DNA of 25,538 nucleotides, from positions 1 through 25,538 of the IMG/VR virus record IMGVR_UViG_3300024344_002827; one strand, given 5' to 3'. The DNA is from a virus. Positions 11,818-22,893 of the stretch are shown here, piece after piece. The notes beneath the pieces were generated by a model, which ran no database searches, was not told where the DNA came from, and worked only from the letters and a program-made list of their open reading frames with translations. The position numbers and the translations under genes are program-made. Numbering within the stretch: the stretch's first letter is position 1; the number at the start of each line of letters is the position of its first letter.

Positions 11818-11836
11818 GTGTCCTCTGTGGTTGGTT

Positions 11837-11878
11837 GGATGAAGAGGGGCCGGGACCATTCCCGACCCCCACTCATCC
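11837..11878 (-). terminator. Strong hairpin after the capsid genes
   Basis: A 19-position stem with one mismatch and a few G-U pairs closes a 4-base loop, 10 bases after the stop of the 255-residue protein. No run of T follows, so it is not a perfect intrinsic terminator. It may reduce readthrough from capsid to tail genes, or be an RNase processing or stability site. Confidence 0.5.
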
Positions 11879-11888
11879 AGTAGGTTCG

Positions 11889-12666: not shown

Positions 12667-13704
12667 TTACGCCGTGATTCCGGTCAGCTTGTTGCTGGAC
12701 CGGCGGCTGTCTGTGCAGAGGTTCGCCTCGAAGATCACATGAGCAACGAACGCATCCTGATTCGTCCCGCGCTCCATCGGAGTCAGATCGAACAGGGCAC
12801 CCGGAAGGTGCTTGAGCATCACGCACTCGGTGTCCACGAAGTACATCGTGCCAGACGGGCAGTAGTGGTCATAGAAGATCGGCTTGCGCCGGAACGTCAG
12901 GGCCGTGAACCCGAGATCACCCATGCGGGTGTCCTCGAATCGCACGTTCGGCGTCAGCGAGCCTTCGTAGAACTCGTGAATCGCCGAAGTCGTGAGGACG
13001 GCCTTCGGCCCCGTCGCGCCCTCGGTCGCCCGGTTGTCCGCCTTGCGCATGTCGGAAAGACCCTGCGTGGCGAACGAGCCGGAAGCGAACGAGATCGAAG
13101 CCGGGGCCGTCCCGACATCCGACACGCCTCGGGCATTCCATCCCGTGTACGTGGCACCCGTGTAGCCCTGAAGCGAATCGTTCGCGCTCACGATGCTGTC
13201 CAGCGACGTGACATCGTTCGCACCGCTCGAACTCGCGAGCAACTGCTGAGCGACGTTATCGGCCGCACCAGACACGGCATCGTTCTCCTTGCGGAGCAGG
13301 ATGTTCGCAATCTGCGCCTCGCCGGAGTTCTTCCGGAGAGTCGAGCCGTCGATGACGACCGAGCCCGCACCGAGCTTGAAGTTCGCGCGCGTTCCGCGAT
13401 CGGGATCGCTCGTGTCCATGCTGATCGGAGAGAAGCCCCCCGGAAGCATCTGGAACGACGAGTTCGCACCGAGCTTGACGTTGACGCGGATCGACTCGCC
13501 CGAAACCTGATTCGGGCTGGTCATCGGATCCCCGCTGTCACCAATCCGACCGGAGAGCACGTCTCCGATCTTTCCTGCGAAGAGCGACAACACCGGGTGG
13601 TTGTTGAGATAGTTCTCTTTGATCCCGGGGTGGATGCTCTCGAGCGTGGTGACGAGAAGCTGTCCGTACGTGCGGTTTTCAGCAACCGCGGCAGGAGTAG
13701 TCAT
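12667..13704 (-). CDS. Major capsid protein, 345 aa
   Basis: Start ATG 13704 with GAGG upstream, 11 bases after the scaffold gene. The length is normal for a HK97-fold capsid protein. The N-terminal helix region (NRTYGQLLVTTLESIHPGIK) precedes a Gly/Ser-rich loop and a charged helix near 120-150 (SGEAQIANILLRKENDAV). The C-terminal third contains a segment common in phage capsid proteins: KPIFYDHYCPSGTMYFVD followed by LKHLPG. It is in the standard order portal, scaffold, capsid. It builds the icosahedral shell with help of the scaffold encoded just upstream. Identification comes from order, length and this C-terminal pattern. Confidence 0.8.
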   Translation of the reverse strand: MTTPAAVAENRTYGQLLVTTLESIHPGIKENYLNNHPVLSLFAGKIGDVLSGRIGDSGDPMTSPNQVSGESIRVNVKLGANSSFQMLPGGFSPISMDTSDPDRGTRANFKLGAGSVVIDGSTLRKNSGEAQIANILLRKENDAVSGAADNVAQQLLASSSGANDVTSLDSIVSANDSLQGYTGATYTGWNARGVSDVGTAPASISFASGSFATQGLSDMRKADNRATEGATGPKAVLTTSAIHEFYEGSLTPNVRFEDTRMGDLGFTALTFRRKPIFYDHYCPSGTMYFVDTECVMLKHLPGALFDLTPMERGTNQDAFVAHVIFEANLCTDSRRSSNKLTGITA

Positions 13705-14663: not shown

Positions 14664-14978
14664 CTACTTCCCGAACGAATAAATTCGTCCAAGACCTAGA
14701 TGTGATTCGTTCCTCGCCCCGTGGTGCTTGTCCGAAGACGCACCGAGGGCCAAGTTGTTTTCACGCGCGAACCGGGCGAGTTCGCCTCGACTGCCGAACG
14801 GCTCTTCGCGCAAGTGCGGGTAGTGACGCGGGCCGCCCCACTCGTCCGTGTTCTTGTGCGCCGCCGGCAGAAACGCGATGTCCATCTCCGAGCCGCAGCA
14901 TGAGGGAACGTCGTCGCTCCATCGGTCGCGCTCGAAGGCACCGCACGCCTTGCAGTAGTACGAGTGCATGACGGCCAC
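14664..14978 (-). CDS. Small zinc-ribbon protein, 104 aa
   Basis: GTG 14978 is chosen: AGGAGG is 6 bases upstream, and it overlaps the portal stop by one base (TAGTG); an ATG at 14969 is too far from that site. Cys 9 and 12 (CKAC) with the Cys pair at 27-28 (SCCGSEMD) form a short zinc-ribbon like those in FmdB-type regulatory proteins and in small phage proteins found between portal and scaffold. The rest is hydrophilic, with a Gly/His/Arg-rich segment (HYPHLREEPFGSRGELARFA). The biochemical role is unknown. Position suggests head assembly, but a regulatory role is possible. Confidence 0.65.
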   Translation of the reverse strand: MAVMHSYYCKACGAFERDRWSDDVPSCCGSEMDIAFLPAAHKNTDEWGGPRHYPHLREEPFGSRGELARFARENNLALGASSDKHHGARNESHLGLGRIYSFGK

Positions 14979-16765
14979 TACGCACCTCCTGGGACGGGGC
15001 GAAGACCCGCGCCCACCGCATTCTGCGCGGCGGAGGGAATCGAGTCGCCGGGGCCTTCGCCCTCTTGGCCCTGCGCGTCCTCCGCCATCCGATTGCCCGT
15101 CTGCTCACTGACGACCGCCTGTTGCGGGTCCATGCCCGACAGTTCCGTGATGCGCTCGTGCGCATACCGCTGGGCCACGAGTTGCGACTCAACACCGCCG
15201 AGAGCGTTATATCCGGTGACGAAGCGCGCGAGTTCCGTGTTCGGGTCGGTTCGCAGCGTGCTGTCGAGCTTCACGTCGTACGAGTATTCGCCCTGCAACT
15301 GGTCGACCGTGACCTCGATGAAACCGTTTGCCCGGTCATCGGCGGTCAAGAAGTCGAGGTTCTGCTTGCCGATCACGGGCAGGATGAACGCACGAGCCTG
15401 CTCGCTCTGGAGGAACGTGCGGTGCATGACCGAAGTCACGTTCGCGGCGAACCGCTCGAACCGCTCCTGCGTGCGACCCCGAGCGACCATGCCACCCGCA
15501 GCAATGTTGTTCGCCTCGGCCGCCGTCTCGACATTGGCTCGCTGGCCGCGGTCGAAGTTCGAGACGCCGAGCACCTCGCGGATCTGTTCCTTGATCTGGA
15601 ACGTCAACCCGATCAGTTGCCCGTCGATGGGCGACACGCCGATCTCCTTGATCGCTTGATCCAGGTTGTCGCCCTGAACCTCGAACGCTTCCATGAATGA
15701 CGCGGGATTCCGGATGAGTTCTCGCGTCTCTTCACTGAATGCGTCCTGATTGAGAAACAACAAACGGCGCGTGCGAGAGACGAGTGCGTTGATCGTCGTC
15801 CAGACCTTGTTGTAGAGGAGCTGCTCGTCCCAGAACATGCGCGGGAACGCGATCGGGAACGGCGTGTCTATCTGATCGTTGAACCAGAGGCCCGAATACG
15901 GAAGTTGGCCGTAATTGAACGCCCAGTCTCGCTCCTCTCGGATCAACTTGTCCGAGCCGGGGCTCATGCCGAAGAACTTCCGTTCGTGGGCGTCGTAGAC
16001 GATCCACTCCTCATAGATGCTCATCACATCCGGCGATCCGTGCTCGAGCCGGCCGCTCTGTCGGTCCTTCGGCCGCGTGTCAAAGTGCTTCGTTGCAGTC
16101 AGGTCGCGCCGCTTGATGAGATTCGGGTCGTCCCGGATGTCCTCCTCGTAGTGCGTCGCGTAGAACGCGCACCAGCGAGGCTCCTGCGTCGGGTCGAACG
16201 AGTTCACGAGGGGATCGATCCGGATCTCCCAGGGCCGCATGAACTGCACCCACGGAAGGTCGGGCGTCTGATTCTTGAACCGCGTGATGATCCGGCCGTT
16301 ATCGTTCTCGAACGACACTTCGGGCGTGAACCCGTGACGCACGAACCCGGCACCCGTGATGACCGCAGACAGCAGCGCGCGGTCGACTTCCTTTTTCACG
16401 TCGCGTTCGCGCCACATCAGTTCGACGATCTGCTCGTTGAGCCACGCCTTGCGCCGTGCCGTCTCGTCGGCAGCGGGGCCGCCCAACGGCCGGAGGATCG
16501 GATCGGGGATCTTGGCGCTCAGTTGCGCCGTCATCGTGTTGATGATCGAGAACATGATGTTCCCAAACATCTGGTCAGCCTCTTCCATCGCGCCGTTCAT
16601 GACCCGCGGAAAGTTCCCGCGATAGCCGTTCAGGAAGGACATGGCGCTGTACTTGTCGGCCGAGCCGTCCTTGCCGTCGGGGATCCAACCGACATCGCGC
16701 CACTGGTTCTCGGCGTGCTGCAGCCGTTGCCGCCATCGCTGGAACTCGAGATCGCTCATCGCCAT
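14978..16765 (-). CDS. Portal protein, 595 aa
   Basis: Start ATG 16765 overlaps the terminase stop by one base (TGATG). The size and helical N-terminus with many Trp and Arg (LEFQRWRQRLQHAENQWRDV) followed by LNGYRGNFPRVMNG and NIMFSIINTMTAQL are those of podovirus-type portals. A central region about residues 270-330 mixes beta and helix (FFGMSPGSDKLIREERDWAF), and a long helix near 340-360 could be the channel-lining segment. The C-terminus is Gln/Gly/Pro-rich. The product would form the dodecameric ring that takes in DNA and binds the adaptor. It follows large terminase and precedes scaffold as expected. Confidence 0.85.
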   Translation of the reverse strand: MAMSDLEFQRWRQRLQHAENQWRDVGWIPDGKDGSADKYSAMSFLNGYRGNFPRVMNGAMEEADQMFGNIMFSIINTMTAQLSAKIPDPILRPLGGPAADETARRKAWLNEQIVELMWRERDVKKEVDRALLSAVITGAGFVRHGFTPEVSFENDNGRIITRFKNQTPDLPWVQFMRPWEIRIDPLVNSFDPTQEPRWCAFYATHYEEDIRDDPNLIKRRDLTATKHFDTRPKDRQSGRLEHGSPDVMSIYEEWIVYDAHERKFFGMSPGSDKLIREERDWAFNYGQLPYSGLWFNDQIDTPFPIAFPRMFWDEQLLYNKVWTTINALVSRTRRLLFLNQDAFSEETRELIRNPASFMEAFEVQGDNLDQAIKEIGVSPIDGQLIGLTFQIKEQIREVLGVSNFDRGQRANVETAAEANNIAAGGMVARGRTQERFERFAANVTSVMHRTFLQSEQARAFILPVIGKQNLDFLTADDRANGFIEVTVDQLQGEYSYDVKLDSTLRTDPNTELARFVTGYNALGGVESQLVAQRYAHERITELSGMDPQQAVVSEQTGNRMAEDAQGQEGEGPGDSIPSAAQNAVGAGLRPVPGGA

Positions 16766-18411
16766 CAGAGGAGCCCTCCGACGGGACGCTGTGCGTAGGC
16801 ACTCGCGACCGTGGCGCGGCGCTGCCCGCGGCGGTGCTCGAGCACACGCGCGCGCTGCATCTCTATCCAGTTGGGCTCATTGGCCTTGATGAGTCGCAGC
16901 GTGCCGAACGGGCGCGACTGCACGTAGTACCGCGCCATGTCGTAGGCGTGGTCGGCACCGATCAAGGCCGTGGGGCTCGTCTCGCTGCGCACCTTCGTGT
17001 TCCAGCGAAGCGACTTCCATTCGTTGATGACCGCAGAATTGTCGGAGTGAACGAGCATCGACGGCGACCCGGTGGCCGGGTCCGTCTGGAGCATGTTCAT
17101 GAACTCCATGTGCCCGGCCTGCCGATCGACCTGCGCCTTCTTGTCGATGTTCCACACGCGGAATCCGTGCCGGGCAAGCGTGGCCGCTACCTCGGGCTTC
17201 TTCGGATCGCCAATCACGCGGCGGAACTCGAAATCGCGCTGGAAGTGCTGCTCGAGCCAGCGGCGTTGTTCCTTGACACGGTCGACGATGTCGTCGGGCG
17301 TGAGGTTCTGCTCGTAGATCGAGCGGCGCAGGCAGACCTGTTTGGGACCGACCAGCCAGAACCCGATCACCGTGCCATCGGAGAAGCCGTAATCGACTGC
17401 CAGGTCGAGATCGGCATGTCGGAACCACGACTTGTCTTCGCGAATGACGTGAGCGGGCTGCCCCTGCGCGCCGATATGCTCGCGGAGCGGGACGACGCGG
17501 CCTTCCTTGAGCGTCCAGCGCCCGAGGAACTGCTCGGCAAACCCGTCGTCCTTGGCTGCGTCACACTGCACGATCGGGTCGAAGCAGTCATGACCGTTGG
17601 CAATCGAGGGCGGCTTGTTCTCGTCGACGGGCAGCGTCGTGACTTCGCCCGTCACGGTGAGTTCAGCTTGTGCGTGTGCCGCCCAGAATCGGTCGCACTT
17701 GTACTCGGGGTTGGCGCGAACGGTGAAGCAGAACGATTCGATACCGAGTTCAGGGTTGTCCTCGGCCGACTCGATCATGTCAAGGATCCAACCCGCGTTG
17801 ACCTTCGGCGTGGTGGGTAAGATCGCGCGGGTGAAACGCGCGGAGATGTATTTCTTCCAGACCGACTCGTCGAGCTCGGCGGCCTCGCTGAGAATCACCC
17901 AATCGAGCTCTTCGCTCTGGAGCGACTTTTCATTCGCAGAGGTCCGGACCTGGATCACGCTCTCGACATCTTCGCCGCGCTGGTTTTTGCCCCAGAAGAG
18001 GACAATCTCCATATCGCCCTGGTTGGCGTTGCGCTTGGAGCGGCGGATCTCGTAGCCCCACTTCATGATCGGGGCCTTCTCGACGAGTTCCGTGTAGAGG
18101 TAGTCGAACTCTTTCGCGAGGTCGTAGTTGGGACAAACGACCCAGCCTCGAAACGTCTCGGGCACGTAGTCGCCGAACTTGCCCTTGATCGCCATCTGGT
18201 AGGCCACGCCATGCGCCACGATGTCGGGATAGACATCGGCGGCACCCGAATACGACTTCGCCGTTCGTGCCGGGCTCGAAGCGATCTTGATCTTGGCCCG
18301 CGACGCATGGAAGCGATCGACTTCCGACTCGTAGGTCCGGTAGCCGTGCGCTCTCCACACGTTCTCACGGAGCGTGTCGAGTTGATCGCTCGAGAGTCCC
18401 GCCAGCGTCAC
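16765..18411 (-). CDS. terL: Terminase large subunit, 548 aa
   Basis: The start is GTG 18411, as no ATG occurs until well into the ATPase domain; the Shine-Dalgarno is weak. An ATPase domain has a Walker A-like loop SSPARTAKS at residues 45-53, with Ala where the usual Gly precedes Lys, and a Walker B-like LDWVILSEAAE near 169-179. A C-terminal RNase H-like nuclease domain shows Asp 340 (LAVDYGFSD), Asp 402 (VIGDPKK), and Asp 487 and 491 (GADHAYD). It pumps DNA into the head and cuts the concatemer. The portal gene follows by a one-base overlap. The likely small subunit lies 1.8 kb upstream across a non-coding region. Confidence 0.88.
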   Translation of the reverse strand: MTLAGLSSDQLDTLRENVWRAHGYRTYESEVDRFHASRAKIKIASSPARTAKSYSGAADVYPDIVAHGVAYQMAIKGKFGDYVPETFRGWVVCPNYDLAKEFDYLYTELVEKAPIMKWGYEIRRSKRNANQGDMEIVLFWGKNQRGEDVESVIQVRTSANEKSLQSEELDWVILSEAAELDESVWKKYISARFTRAILPTTPKVNAGWILDMIESAEDNPELGIESFCFTVRANPEYKCDRFWAAHAQAELTVTGEVTTLPVDENKPPSIANGHDCFDPIVQCDAAKDDGFAEQFLGRWTLKEGRVVPLREHIGAQGQPAHVIREDKSWFRHADLDLAVDYGFSDGTVIGFWLVGPKQVCLRRSIYEQNLTPDDIVDRVKEQRRWLEQHFQRDFEFRRVIGDPKKPEVAATLARHGFRVWNIDKKAQVDRQAGHMEFMNMLQTDPATGSPSMLVHSDNSAVINEWKSLRWNTKVRSETSPTALIGADHAYDMARYYVQSRPFGTLRLIKANEPNWIEMQRARVLEHRRGQRRATVASAYAQRPVGGLL

Positions 18412-18678: not shown

Positions 18679-18978
18679 TCCATACCCCCCGTGTCAAGAA
18701 ATGGGATGTCTCCCCATTTAGCACGGCGAGAGCGAGAACGCGACAAAACAGGCTGCATCTTGTGGCACTTACCACAGCGCACCCCTATCCTTGGGATGTG
18801 GGGTTCCCCGCAATGCCCTCCCAGGCGTGCGGATTCCCCGTGGAGATGACGTGGACGCACACATCCCCAGAACGCAGGTTGAAGTCGCCCCGGTCTTTGT
18901 CGAATCCGGCCGGGGCGGCTCCCTGCCTCTCGACGGCTCAGACGACGGGATCGGCGGATCCGGAAGCCGGAGTGGCGG
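18679..18978. other. Intergenic region holding a palindrome and a repeated motif
   Basis: About 300 bases with no convincing gene, between the divergent 85-residue and 114-residue genes. It holds a perfect 7-base-arm palindrome at 18699-18719, a motif near 18777-18787 (GCGCACCCCTAT type) also found at the leftward promoter near 22590, and GGGGTTCCCC near 18801. It probably carries the leftward promoter for packaging and head genes, but no clear -35/-10 pair was found. Confidence 0.4.
18699..18719. promoter_or_regulatory. Perfect inverted repeat upstream of the structural operon
   Basis: AAATGGG and CCCATTT flank a 7-base centre, 21 bases before the start of the 85-residue gene. It could be an operator or, in RNA, a short 5' leader hairpin. 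No protein can be assigned to it. Confidence 0.4.
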
Positions 18979-19323
18979 ATGAGTGGTCGGCTCAACTGGG
19001 AGCGAGCCAACGAGATCGAGCGGATCCGCGTACAGGGACATGGCGCTGCGGAACTCTCGGGGGTCGACAAAAACGGCGATCCGCTCGCGAAGCCCAAGCC
19101 GAGGAAACGAAAGAACTCCAAGCGCTCAGGACCCAAGGCCCTCGAAGGCCGGCTCCAAGCGCTCGAGAACGCTTACCTGGGACGTATGCGAGGACGACTC
19201 GGACGCATCCCCAACATCAGCCTGCCCGAGCACATGAAGCGCGAGGCATACCGGAACGCGCGCGCCCGCCGCGATTCGGAGCTGATCGGTGAAGGAGGAC
19301 AGGGGGACAGGCACGGGGCCTGA
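18979..19323 (+). CDS. Plus-strand basic protein of unknown role, 114 aa
   Basis: ATG 18979 has GGAG about 7 bases upstream. The N-terminus (LNWERANEIERIRVQGHGAA) resembles the opening of small phage proteins of unknown function that start with a LNW-E/D-xA pattern and a Gly after a short helix. The middle is a Lys/Arg/Pro-rich linker (LAKPKPRKRKNSKRSGPKAL), followed by a helical basic C-terminal half. It could bind nucleic acid. It is one of only two plus-strand genes and lies between the small and large terminase genes. The opposite-strand frames here look like shadows by composition. Confidence 0.5.
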   Translation: MSGRLNWERANEIERIRVQGHGAAELSGVDKNGDPLAKPKPRKRKNSKRSGPKALEGRLQALENAYLGRMRGRLGRIPNISLPEHMKREAYRNARARRDSELIGEGGQGDRHGA

Positions 19324-19370
19324 GCAGTAGCGAGCCGCCGACGAAGCAAGAGACTCCACAGAAGGTGACG

Positions 19371-19502
19371 ATGCGTAGCGGAAATTGGGACCCGCGATCT
19401 GACCCAGCGCCTTCGACGTACTCGGCGAACCCCCAACGGCAGGGAGCAGAACTTGCAATTCCTACGCTCCCGAACGAGAAAAGAACTCCCTCACCCACAT
19501 AG
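19371..19502 (+). CDS. Possible very short protein, 43 aa
   Basis: ATG 19371 is preceded by AAGG at 5 bases, and the frame (MRSGNWDPRSDPAPSTYSAN onward) ends at TAG 19500-19502. The product would be Pro/Ser/Asn-rich and disordered. Third-position base use is not clearly coding. It follows the 114-residue gene on the same strand. It may be chance. Confidence 0.2.
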   Translation: MRSGNWDPRSDPAPSTYSANPQRQGAELAIPTLPNEKRTPSPT

Positions 19503-20051
19503 CCCGACCAGTGGAACGCTTACCGTGCGGACGGGACTGGGTCACTTGCGTTCAACACTCAACTGCACCTGCCAGCCTGCCCTGGTTCCACATGGAACTA
19601 CGGCCAATACGGCAAGTCGACTTCATCTAGCCTCGCGCACATGAACTTCGTGAACAGAATCACGCTGTTACACGGCAATGGAATATGAGCGGGAGATGAA
19701 ATACCTGCGGGGAAGGCGTTTCGGGGGCTGGGATGGAGGAGGGGACGGTCACTAACATCCAAGACCCCCACCCCCCGGAAAGCCCCCCCGTCGAGCTGTA
19801 GACGCACAGGTTGAGTTAGAGAGCGTCCACCGCCGATAAATCAGTATTAGGTCAAGTAGGGAACGTAATGATTCCAACTACTTAGCCGATTCGAGGCGAT
19901 TATCGGGGATGCATCAGGGAAAGCAGATGGATCGGGAACGTGCTGTGTACCAAGTGGTTAAATACGAGACGGTTCCGTCCCCCTACCAATTCCCTCGCGC
20001 ACACCCCTCACACGTTGACGCTCATGTCCGTCCCTCTCGCATTCCCCAACA

Positions 20052-20081
20052 TCTCCCGCCTGCTGATCCCTCTCCCGCCTG
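20052..20081. repeat. 11-base direct repeat, two copies
   Basis: TCTCCCGCCTG occurs at 20052-20062 and 20071-20081 (period 19) in the pyrimidine-rich part of the non-coding region beside the small terminase gene. Confidence 0.6.
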
Positions 20082-20118
20082 ACGGACTGACCTGGCTTTC
20101 CGGTCCCACCCATCCTTA

Positions 20119-20177
20119 CTGACACCCGTTCAACACCGCTACTGAACGCATGTCGGTACTGCTCCTGACACCCGTTC
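20119..20177. repeat. 13-base direct repeat flanking a short hairpin
   Basis: CTGACACCCGTTC occurs at 20119-20131 and 20165-20177. Between them, CGTTCA (20127) and TGAACG (20143) form a 6-base stem. The second copy ends 4 bases from the stop of the small terminase gene. It could be a protein binding site such as a packaging signal. Confidence 0.55.
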
Positions 20178-20181
20178 GGTA

Positions 20182-20706
20182 TCACTCGGTGTCGGTGTCG
20201 GTGGGTGTAGTCGCCTCGACTTCGATCGCTTCGTTGGCGGGATCCTTCTTCGTGAGCGTCACGTCGGCCTGGTCGAGCAATCGTTCCAGGGCGCTCACGC
20301 CCGAGTCTGCAGGTGCGATGGGTTTCGCTTGGAACGCCAGCACCTTGTCGATGTTGACGCCTTGCGCCTTGATGAGATCGCCGTCCTTCCACTCGTGCTC
20401 GGGGTCGACGAGCCGCTCCGTCACTCGCTCCGTAGCAATCAGGGCTGCGGTCATGGCGCCCTTCTGGAGCGCATCGAGCGCGACGGTCATCCCATCGCCC
20501 TCTTTGCTGTCAACCTGGCGCAATTTTTGCTCGTAGCGGGCAAGTGCCCTGCGTTCGATTCCACACACCCGAGCCGCTTCCGAGTAGGACGCGCCATCTC
20601 GAATCATGGCGAGCCCGATGCCTACTCGCTGCTGCCGTTCACTGAGCGCGTTGGGCTGGATTTCGGCAACTTGGCTCTCGTATCCCGTGGGATCGCTGCT
20701 GCTCAT
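20182..20706 (-). CDS. Probable terminase small subunit (HTH protein), 174 aa
   Basis: ATG 20706 (MSSSDPTGYES) has a very good GGAGG 6 bases upstream and lies 2 bases after the stop of the secreted peptide gene, so an earlier in-frame start is rejected. Residues about 22-60 form a helix-turn-helix of the homeodomain-like type (RQQRVGIGLAMIRDGASYSE, then ARVCGIERRALARYE). It is followed by helices with the phrase KAQGVNIDKVLAFQ, a pattern seen in small terminase and related phage DNA-binding proteins, and an acidic Thr/Asp-rich tail. It would recognise the packaging site and recruit the large subunit. A transcription regulator is the alternative, since the two terminase genes are 1.8 kb apart. 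Confidence 0.55.
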   Translation of the reverse strand: MSSSDPTGYESQVAEIQPNALSERQQRVGIGLAMIRDGASYSEAARVCGIERRALARYEQKLRQVDSKEGDGMTVALDALQKGAMTAALIATERVTERLVDPEHEWKDGDLIKAQGVNIDKVLAFQAKPIAPADSGVSALERLLDQADVTLTKKDPANEAIEVEATTPTDTDTE

Positions 20707-20900: not shown

Positions 20901-20917
20901 GGGGCACCAGAATAGCA

Positions 20918-20960
20918 GAACGCCCCCGGAGCTCCGCTTGCATGGAGCCTCGAGGGCGTC
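20918..20960 (-). terminator. Large stem-loop between the 256-residue and the knottin-like genes
   Basis: Arms of about 17 positions, with one mismatch and a few G-U pairs, close an 8-base loop. The following minus-strand bases are T-rich in part (GTTCTGCTATTCT) but not a clean T run. It may be a terminator for the accessory operon or an RNA processing or stability hairpin; complete termination would leave the peptide and small terminase without an obvious promoter. Confidence 0.45.
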
Positions 20961-20984
20961 TCTGGTGGTGCTGTACGCTCGAGT

Positions 20985-21755
20985 CTAGCTGTGATCCGCG
21001 GCCGTTCCCTTGAAGACGGCCACACCAGGCGAGCCCCACTTGAGCGAGTGGACCCGCACGCACCAGCCGCTCGACCACGTGTCGCCCGCCTTCAGGTACG
21101 TCCCTTTGCCCATCGAGTAGTTCTCGCGATGTTCCGCGTCCTTTCCCGCTTCCGCGAGATGTGCCGTCGGTTCCCACGATGCGGCCGCTTTCCGCATGGT
21201 CGGGAAAAGGCTGCGGTCATGCTTCAGGAAAGCGAGAATCACGCGCTCCCCCTTCCGCTTCGTGGCGAAGTAGTCGGTCTGGGTGTCGCAATCGTTCTCC
21301 TCGAGCTCGGCCACAACCACACCCTTCGCCCACTCGGGGCATCGGGTTGTGAATTCGGCCTCGAATTCCGCCTTCCGTTTGGCGATCTGTTCGCGCTCGA
21401 GATCCCTGCGCGCACGTTCGTCCGCCTGGAAGCGCTGCGCCTCGCCGATCGTCCGGAGAAGCGTTTCCTTCCCAACAGGCACCGAGTCATAGGGCGCCGC
21501 CTTCTCCGCGTGCCGCTGAATCACCGACCACGGAACCGACTGGATGCTACGCCCTTCGCGCGTCTCGCGGTCGATGTTGACGACGCGGCCGTAACTCTCC
21601 GGATTCTCCGGATCCGGCCCGATGTAGAACCCAGGCCGGTAGTTCGCGCGATCCTCGTGCAGTACCGGAGTACCCGGCTCGAGTGCCACCGGCTCTTCCG
21701 CGACCATCTCGAAGCGTCCGTTCCTGATGTCTGCCAGCGAGTAAATCTTGCCCAT
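20985..21755 (-). CDS. Unknown protein, 256 aa
   Basis: ATG 21755 (MGKIYSLADIRNG) has AGAGG 8 bases upstream; a GTG three codons earlier overlaps that site and is unlikely. The N-terminal 80 residues are beta/turn-rich with Pro and Gly (LHEDRANYRPGFYIGPDPEN). Residues about 95-135 are a highly charged helix (ADERARRDLEREQIAKRKAE). Then comes a conserved-looking mixed part (TDYFATKRKGERVILAFLKH, then LFPTMRKAAASWEPTAHLAE) and a Gly/Trp/Ser-rich end (YLKAGDTWSSGWCVRVHSLK). The family is not identified. It follows a shared hairpin element and lies upstream of the secreted peptide gene. Confidence 0.65.
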   Translation of the reverse strand: MGKIYSLADIRNGRFEMVAEEPVALEPGTPVLHEDRANYRPGFYIGPDPENPESYGRVVNIDRETREGRSIQSVPWSVIQRHAEKAAPYDSVPVGKETLLRTIGEAQRFQADERARRDLEREQIAKRKAEFEAEFTTRCPEWAKGVVVAELEENDCDTQTDYFATKRKGERVILAFLKHDRSLFPTMRKAAASWEPTAHLAEAGKDAEHRENYSMGKGTYLKAGDTWSSGWCVRVHSLKWGSPGVAVFKGTAADHS

Positions 21756-21784
21756 CGGTTTCACCTCTCGTTTCTGTTGAAGTC

Positions 21785-21836
21785 TGATCGATCCGAGAGG
21801 GGCACAGCACAGGCTATGCCCCCTGCGGATCGGTCA
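21785..21836 (-). repeat. Stop-codon-linked hairpin element, copy 2
   Basis: The outer arms are TGATCGATCCG (21785-21795) and CGGATCGGTCA (21826-21836). The inner stem is AGGGGCA/TGCCCCC around a 12-base loop. The right arm contains the stop codon of the 124-residue gene. The arms are identical to those of the copy at 22235-22294, while the inner sequence differs. No T run follows. Confidence 0.75.
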
Positions 21837-22208
21837 GCCCTCGTCGGCCCTCGGGATCGGCTGGTACTCCGCCGACGCACGATCCGCATCGACCATGCCG
21901 CACCGTCCGCACCCGGCCCCCGCTTCCCTGTGCCATTCGTGTCCGAAGCGTTCGCAGTCCCGAAACGCCTCGCGATCGATCGGGGCGCCCATCACAGCAC
22001 CCGCGCTGCGAATCGCTCGCACGCCGCTTGTGCCGCTGGGCGCGCTCGCATCGATGTGATGCGTGGACCCGTCGGGGTAGGTCACATCGGCCAGCCAGAA
22101 TCCGGAAGGCATTCGGCTGGAGTTGAATTCGAGACGCCCAGTGCGCGGGGCATGGTGGATAGCGCGAGTCCCTGTGTCTCCGCGTCCGTCGATCGTCCAT
22201 CGAGTCAT
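21834..22208 (-). CDS. Unknown protein with zinc-binding-type Cys/His cluster, 124 aa
   Basis: ATG 22208 (MTRWTIDGRG) has GAGG 7 bases upstream. The N-terminal half is a small beta-rich region (RLEFNSSRMPSGFWLADVTY). The C-terminal part has Cys 85, His 90, Cys 100 and Cys 103 in the order C-x4-H, then C-x2-C (CERFGHEW, GCGRCG), as in small zinc-binding phage proteins. Its role is unknown. The stop codon is inside a hairpin arm shared with the gene before it. Confidence 0.6.
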   Translation of the reverse strand: MTRWTIDGRGDTGTRAIHHAPRTGRLEFNSSRMPSGFWLADVTYPDGSTHHIDASAPSGTSGVRAIRSAGAVMGAPIDREAFRDCERFGHEWHREAGAGCGRCGMVDADRASAEYQPIPRADEG

Positions 22209-22234
22209 GTTGCTACCTCGTGTCGTGGGATCGG

Positions 22235-22294
22235 TGATCGATCCGGCAATCCGACAGGACCCGCAGGCCGTGCCGGATTGCGGCGGATCGGTCA
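22235..22294 (-). repeat. Stop-codon-linked hairpin element, copy 1
   Basis: The outer arms are TGATCGATCCG (22235-22245) and CGGATCGGTCA (22284-22294), with an inner stem GCAATCCG/CGGATTGC and a 20-base loop that can form a further short stem. The right arm contains the stop codon of the 84-residue gene. The arms match copy 2 base for base, but the inner parts do not. Confidence 0.75.
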
Positions 22295-22546
22295 AACGTC
22301 GAGGCCACCCCAGGAGCCGACCACCCAGCCGAGCCACGGATAGGCCACGGGCGGCCGTTCGCAGCCGAACGATTCGCCGGCGCCGCGGCCCCAGTGGTAG
22401 GGATCGACGTTCGGGTCACAGTCCGGCACGTCGAAGTCGTAGGCGGCCCAGGTCTCGCCATCGTCGCAAACGAGCGAGAAGCGGTGCCGGTCCCAGGGCT
22501 GGGGCGGGCGGGGCTCGTAGTCGGGGCAGGCAGTGTCGAGGTACAT
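22292..22546 (-). CDS. Unknown Trp/Pro/Asp-rich small protein, 84 aa
   Basis: ATG 22546 (MYLDTACPDYE) has GGAG 8 bases upstream and is about 34 bases from the predicted transcription start. The protein is acidic and rich in Trp, Pro and Tyr, with Cys at 7, 27, 43 and 62 (FSLVCDDGETWAAYDFDVPD). It is the first gene of the leftward unit and ends in a hairpin element. No family was recognised. Confidence 0.55.
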   Translation of the reverse strand: MYLDTACPDYEPRPPQPWDRHRFSLVCDDGETWAAYDFDVPDCDPNVDPYHWGRGAGESFGCERPPVAYPWLGWVVGSWGGLDV

Positions 22547-22586: not shown

Positions 22587-22614
22587 ATTATCGGTAGCCA
22601 CAGATATTAATCAA
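22587..22614 (-). promoter_or_regulatory. Leftward sigma70-type promoter
   Basis: On the minus strand, TTGATT (22614-22609) and GATAAT (22592-22587) are 16 bases apart, in an AT-rich patch of an otherwise GC-rich window. Expected transcription starts near 22580, about 34 bases before the 84-residue gene. It reads away from the plus-strand ribbon-helix-helix gene. Confidence 0.6.
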
Positions 22615-22689: not shown

Positions 22690-22893
22690 ATGGCTGCATC
22701 CCAACGCGGACGCGGCCGGCCCGCACTTCCGGACTCGGAAGCATTGCGCGAGTCGGTCCGTATCCGAATACGAACAGAGGAGCTCGAGGCAATCCGAAAG
22801 GGTGCCGAGCGGGCAGGGAAATCCGTTTCCGACTTCATGCGCGGATTGGCGCTGAGGGAATCGAGGAGGCTCGCGCGAAAAGGAGAACGCTAG
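22690..22893 (+). CDS. Ribbon-helix-helix regulator with AT-hook-like N-terminus, 67 aa
   Basis: ATG 22690 has AGGGA 4 bases upstream. The N-terminus RGRGRPALP contains the GRP core of AT-hook motifs. It is followed by a beta strand (ESVRIRIRTEE) and two helices (ELEAIRKGAERAG, SVSDFMRGLALRES), the usual CopG/MobC-like layout in which the strand contacts DNA as a dimer. It is divergent from the leftward accessory operon and lies beside an AT-rich region with an inverted repeat. It probably represses its own or the divergent promoter. An antitoxin role is less likely because no toxin gene is next to it. Confidence 0.7.
   Translation: MAASQRGRGRPALPDSEALRESVRIRIRTEELEAIRKGAERAGKSVSDFMRGLALRESRRLARKGER

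What the first reader, a model, noticed from the sequence alone, without database searches (positions are those of the whole stretch)
21785..22294. Two stop-codon-linked hairpins with identical outer arms and different cores
Seen: TGATCGATCCG ... CGGATCGGTCA occurs at 21785-21836 and at 22235-22294. In both, the right arm contains the stop codon TGA of the upstream minus-strand gene, and the inner stems and loops are unrelated in sequence but keep pairing. Inference: a repeated RNA element at gene ends (processing, mRNA stability, termination or coupling control) or a small dispersed palindrome. Changed sequence with kept pairing suggests selection for structure.
Basis: partly seen in the sequence, partly recalled or inferred. 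Interest (0 to 1): 0.6.

Follow-up and report, generated by a model that had tools for sequence, protein, structure and literature searches.

The report
Twin stop-codon hairpins between phage genes
In an unclassified tailed-phage fragment, two neighbouring genes each end in a long RNA hairpin whose base is the same 11-letter arm containing the stop codon while the upper part differs; this is most likely a paired version of the ordinary gene-end hairpins common in such phages, and the only odd point is the shared stop-codon-bearing base.

Summary
TGATCGATCCG...CGGATCGGTCA lies at 21785-21836 and 22235-22294 and nowhere else in this 25,538-base virus record. On the gene strand each hairpin opens with the UGA stop of its gene. 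The folds are strong (z about -6). No other shared-arm, different-core pair occurs in ~813 kb of related phage DNA or in 60 simulated genomes. The cores are not detectably related. One correction: on the gene strand the arms carry a C.A mismatch at position 4, in both copies; only the opposite strand pairs throughout. 'Kept pairing in changed cores' is not covariation: two copies cannot be aligned there, and no relative carries the element.

Gene-end hairpins are ordinary here. Four of five leftward spacers of 50-100 nt hold one, none with a U-tract, and in many capsid-gene relatives the capsid gene or the next gene ends in a strong hairpin close to its stop. Best reading: intercistronic mRNA hairpins in a small operon that protect or process upstream message ends and separate the genes' expression; the terminating ribosome would open the outer stem. 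The shared arm probably spread from one gene end to the other. Function is untested. No Rfam, attC, terminator or readthrough signature was found.

The parts
21785..21836 (-). hp1: hairpin at the end of gene B; 5' arm 21836-21826 begins with the UGA stop, 3' arm 21795-21785; inner stem of about 10-12 bp with CUGU loop
22235..22294 (-). hp2: hairpin at the end of gene C; same outer arms (5' arm 22294-22284, 3' arm 22245-22235), unrelated inner stem of about 15 bp
22292..22546 (-). gene C, 84 aa ORFan, its UGA is part of hp2
   Evidence: no relative found
21834..22208 (-). gene B, 124 aa, C-terminal CxxxxGHxW...CxxC-type segment, its UGA is part of hp1
   Evidence: the only database hit (L003) judged spurious
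20985..21755 (-). gene A, 256 aa, follows hp1; distant relative in L148 (36% over residues 157-235)
22587..22614 (-). sigma70-like promoter match (TTGATT-16-GATAAT) upstream of C-B-A; no better than shuffles expect, but in the AT-rich divergent spacer
20903..20966 (-). hp3: strong hairpin between gene A (stop TAG 20987-20985) and a small ORF (start 20900); different sequence, no shared arms
   Evidence: z -3.9
11836..11879 (-). hp4: 8 + 11 bp hairpin with a 1x1 mismatch after the gene that follows the capsid gene, 12 nt past its stop; no U-tract
   Evidence: z -5.5

Best explanation
hp1 and hp2 are intercistronic mRNA hairpins of a small leftward phage operon (C-B-A). [quoted passage not shown] They most likely act after transcription: as a 3'-end block against exonucleases and/or a duplex substrate for RNase III-type processing, so that C, B and A get separate message stability and yield. 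The outer arm spans the UGA and the next 8-9 nt, roughly what a ribosome stopped on the UGA would cover, so the outer stem can form only when no ribosome is terminating; heavy translation of the upstream gene would hold it open. The two copies share the stop-bearing arms probably because one gene-end module was copied to the other gene end, the cores having changed or been replaced since, or because the arm sequence is recognised by a factor. Shown: sequence, position, fold strength, absence of a U-tract, presence of similar unrelated hairpins in other spacers and in relatives. Inferred: transcription as one operon, folding in the cell, the post-transcriptional role, the ribosome gating and the copying.
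For: Stop-anchored arms and strong folds. No terminator-like T-tract at either site. 4 of 5 leftward intergenic spacers of 50-100 nt contain a strong hairpin: hp1, hp2, hp3, hp4; all lack a U-tract. In many of 42 relatives examined the capsid gene or the next gene ends in a strong hairpin, usually 0-30 nt from the stop, several without a T-rich tail (e.g. L068, L070, L087, L117). When the first 9-15 nt are taken as covered by a ribosome, the outer stem is lost and the inner stem stays. Published precedents: hairpins within 15 nt of a stop stall ribosomes and lower translation (REP in E. coli, PMC12306157); ribosomes at a stop codon repress a terminator hairpin a few bases downstream (PMC4824070), which speaks against plain termination here. 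Codon statistics support gene A clearly and C moderately.
Against: No expression or 3'-end data. No close relatives, so no conservation test. Gene B is only weakly coding-like by codon statistics. The gene strand carries a mismatch in the outer stem while the opposite strand pairs fully, which is not what selection on the gene-strand RNA alone would favour. RNase III processing or exonuclease protection rests on general knowledge, not on a test.
Confidence: 0.55

Rival explanations
1. Leaky intrinsic-type (U-less) transcription terminators that reduce transcription step by step through C, B and A, released or repressed by the terminating ribosome.
For: Strong GC-rich hairpins between genes; relatives have some gene-end hairpins with T-rich tails, e.g. 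L038, L061, L097.
Against: No T-tract after either hairpin on either strand. In E. coli a terminator a few bp from a translated stop codon is almost fully repressed (PMC4824070).
Confidence: 0.17
2. DNA-level module boundary: the repeated stop-bearing arms are short recombination targets by which gene B plus its end was acquired or can be lost, as for phage genes flanked by short direct repeats.
For: The arms lie as direct repeats on both sides of gene B; C and B are ORFans. Precedent: Corndog gene 14 is flanked by a 17-bp direct repeat shown together with stop and start codons (PMC4351075).
Against: No related genome with an empty site; 11-12 bp is short for homologous recombination; it does not explain why the cores fold so well.
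Confidence: 0.13
3. A protein-binding site: the identical GATCGATCCG/CGGATCG arms are half-sites, in DNA or RNA, for a phage or host regulator, the core being only a spacer.
For: Arms identical including the imperfect pair, cores free. Precedent: the Corndog 17-bp dyad repeats, suggested to be binding sites of dimeric regulators (PMC4351075).
Against: Only two copies, neither in the promoter region upstream of C. The cores are strongly paired, which a mere spacer would not need.
Confidence: 0.08
4. Programmed UGA readthrough or selenocysteine insertion driven by the hairpin that starts at UGA; from B it would give a B-A fusion, since B and A are in the same frame.
For: UGA-C context, hairpin at the stop, and 26 open codons between B and A (sequence).
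Against: The between-gene codons are not coding-like (-0.40 and -0.33 bits per codon, against +0.31 for A). From C the frame ends at a stop overlapping B's start codon. Shine-Dalgarno-like sequences precede A and B.
Confidence: 0.04

Closest known systems
REP (repetitive extragenic palindromic) hairpins close to stop codons in E. coli
   Same: Long intercistronic hairpin within 15 nt of a stop codon, positioned to affect termination and message decay
   Different: Two copies, not hundreds; no REP consensus tested or expected; cores not conserved; in a phage
Gene-end hairpins of tailed phages, including those after the capsid gene in the relatives found here
   Same: Strong hairpin 0-30 nt after the stop in compact operons, with or without a U-tract
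   Different: Here two hairpins share exact outer arms that contain the stop codon
PeSL (promoter early stem-loop) cassettes of T4-type phages
   Same: Stem-loop at a gene end, repeated in one genome, thought to help gene shuffling
   Different: No promoter follows the stem-loops here; compared only through secondary mentions, as the original papers were not held
17-bp dyad repeats of Cluster O mycobacteriophages (Corndog)
   Same: Identical inverted arms with a free centre, many intergenic, one pair flanking a small gene
   Different: 7-bp arms, 3-bp centre and >30 copies; here 11-nt arms, 30-38-nt folded cores and 2 copies
Integron attC sites
   Same: Anatomy: conserved outer boxes, variable core, at the end of a gene
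   Different: No GTTRRRY/RYYYAAC boxes on either strand

Membership tests
Intrinsic (Rho-independent) terminator | GC-rich hairpin followed by a U-tract | tested here: not met
   one search lists no terminator-like site at either hairpin; sequence after them is GACTTCAACAG and CCGATCCCACG on the gene strand
Intercistronic gene-end mRNA hairpin (generic) | Strong, significant fold located between genes near a stop codon | tested here: met
   z -6.1 and -5.8, stem starts at the UGA
Intercistronic gene-end mRNA hairpin (generic) | Forms in the transcript and changes stability, processing or translation | not testable with these tools
   needs RNA data
REP / dispersed palindromic element | Many copies with one consensus across the genome | tested here: not met
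   two copies in 25.5 kb; none in relatives; the rest of the phage genome is not held
Integron attC | GTTRRRY and RYYYAAC outer boxes | tested here: not met
Integron attC | Integrase (IntI) in the same element | tested here: inconclusive
   none among the proteins scanned, but the record is a fragment and not every ORF was scanned
PeSL | Early promoter adjoining the stem-loop | tested here: not met
   no promoter-like site at 21740-22235; T4 early promoters as such were not modelled
RNase III processing site | About 20 or more bp of near-continuous duplex between genes | tested here: met
   22 and 25 pairs (structures)
RNase III processing site | Cleavage by RNase III | not testable with these tools
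   needs in vitro cleavage or 5'/3'-end mapping
Bacterial SECIS / readthrough element | Open, coding-like frame downstream of the UGA | tested here: not met
   negative codon scores for both spacers
Any Rfam family | Score above the gathering cut-off | tested here: not met
   0 matches in the window

The most novel reading that the evidence does not exclude
A modular, stop-codon-bearing outer stem that is kept in sequence while the core is free to change, used as a portable gene-end joint in this phage: in RNA it is opened by the terminating ribosome, and in DNA it serves as the boundary where small genes are exchanged.
Probability: 0.1. Interest if true: 0.6.

Novelty: new variant of a known kind. 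Interest (0 to 1): 0.28.

Why it matters
If the shared arm has a function, it would show a phage placing the stop codon itself inside a conserved stem so that translation of one gene directly controls folding at its end, and would offer a simple marker for gene-end modules in unclassified phages. If not, it is a copied gene-end hairpin in a lineage where such hairpins are common.

Tried and rejected
Exact arms in viral contigs: none beyond this record. Arms in genome contigs: 29 scattered matches, mostly perfect palindromes; the two in one Verrucomicrobiia MAG are chance neighbours of a ~174-nt repeat family there. Relatives by gene A, B, C, capsid, portal and terminase: only distant ones, so no conservation test of the element. 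Core homology at the apex: not significant. Covariation count on the two copies: uninformative, half of the shuffles reach it. attC boxes: absent. Readthrough: spacer not coding-like. Plasmid and phage DNA similarity: none. A freed 3' arm of hp1 (CCTCTCG) can pair with the Shine-Dalgarno of gene A (CGAGAGG), but the same is not true of hp2, so a common start-site switch is not claimed.

Full report
What is there. The window is the whole of a 25,538-base virus record. It is a tailed phage: capsid protein at 12667-13704 (phrog_9953, E 1.8e-28) and portal at 14978-16765 (weak P22-portal match), and a large terminase at 16765-18411, matched at about 25% identity to annotated terminases. Its nearest capsid relatives are only 22-35% identical, and single-protein scans with the capsid and terminase found no relative in viral contigs, so it stands alone in the collections searched.

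The two elements. On the gene (minus) strand hp1 (21836-21785) and hp2 (22294-22235) begin TGACCGATCCGC and end CGGATCGATCA; the TGA is the stop of gene B and of gene C. Both fold strongly (-39.4 and -39.7 kcal/mol; z -6.1 and -5.8) and rank 1st and 4th among minus-strand windows. In the gene-strand RNA the fourth arm base is a C.A mismatch in both copies; in the opposite strand it is G.T. The inner parts (30 and 38 nt) are not measurably similar: global and local alignment scores are reached by 54% and 23% of shuffles that keep the pairs. The apical GGCAYRGCCTGYG similarity may be real but cannot be told from chance.

Chance. Sixty third-order Markov copies of the record gave no pair of inverted repeats with the same arms, although the number of inverted repeats was similar (80 +/- 13 against 102). 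Across 839 kb including the window, the only pair with identical arms and different cores is this one; one relative (L067) has two hairpins with an identical 32-nt block. The 81 matches of an 18-base version of the arms read from other virus contigs have weaker cores (best -15.9 against -20.8 and -23.5 kcal/mol) and weaker whole hairpins (best -31.9 against -35.5 and -37.2).

Context. C, B and A read leftward from an AT-rich spacer that separates them from a small rightward gene with a NikA-like match. A sigma70-like match lies upstream of C, but the number of such matches is not above shuffles. The spacers C-B and B-A are 83 and 78 nt and are filled by the hairpins plus a ribosome-binding region. 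hp3 lies between A and the next small ORF (z -3.9), and hp4 lies after the gene that follows the capsid gene (z -5.5). With the 1.5-kb gap at 18,679-20,181 set aside, four of five leftward spacers of about 50-100 nt thus hold a strong hairpin. In relatives the capsid gene or the gene after it often ends in a strong hairpin, usually 0-30 nt from the stop, sometimes including it. Gene-end hairpins are therefore normal in this group; the shared arms are not.

How it may work. A U-tract is missing, and published work shows that ribosomes at a stop codon repress terminators a few bases downstream (PMC4824070), so plain termination is less likely than an effect on message stability, processing or translation. 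The stems have 22 and 25 pairs, long enough for RNase III by general knowledge. Hairpins within 15 nt of a stop are reported to stall ribosomes and lower translation in E. coli (PMC12306157). Masking the first 9-15 nt, as a terminating ribosome would, removes the outer stem and leaves the inner one. All of this is inference from sequence.

Why the arms are shared. Copying of a gene-end module, or recognition by a factor, would each explain identical arms with different cores. Corndog gene 14, flanked by a 17-bp direct repeat with stop codons marked in the junction, is a precedent for exchange at short repeats (PMC4351075). No relative here allows a test.

What it is not. No Rfam family, no attC boxes, no adjoining promoter as in PeSL, not a many-copy dispersed palindrome in what is held, and no sign that the spacer is translated by readthrough. 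The claim of covariation is not supported: outer pairs never vary and cores cannot be aligned.

Verdict. Confirmed observation, ordinary class, one unusual trait resting on two copies. Interest 0.28.

Noticed in passing
window 11836-11879 (-): hp4, a 19-bp U-less hairpin 12 nt after the stop of the gene that follows the capsid gene; many relatives have a hairpin at the same place.
   Followed up: partly
window 20903-20966 (-): hp3, a strong hairpin filling the spacer between gene A and a small ORF that begins like a signal peptide.
   Followed up: partly
window 18679-20181: About 1.5 kb without a leftward gene between the terminase end and the gene at 20182-20706; holds one rightward ORF (18979-19323) with coding-like codon use.
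   Followed up: no
window 22690-22893 (+): Small rightward gene with a NikA-like (Pfam PF21983) match, divergent from C-B-A.
   Followed up: no
window 21756-21836 (-): The 3' side of hp1 contains CCTCTCG, the exact complement of CGAGAGG in the Shine-Dalgarno region of gene A; a ribosome on the B stop could free it.
   Followed up: partly
L013, L021 (genome G001, Verrucomicrobiia MAG Co_bin.135): CCGGATCGATCACC occurs 454 times, often as inverted pairs 174 nt apart: a MITE-like repeat family unrelated to the finding.
   Followed up: partly
L067 2546-2577 and 2959-2990: A relative has an identical 32-nt hairpin block twice, 413 bp apart, each preceded by a different second hairpin.
   Followed up: partly
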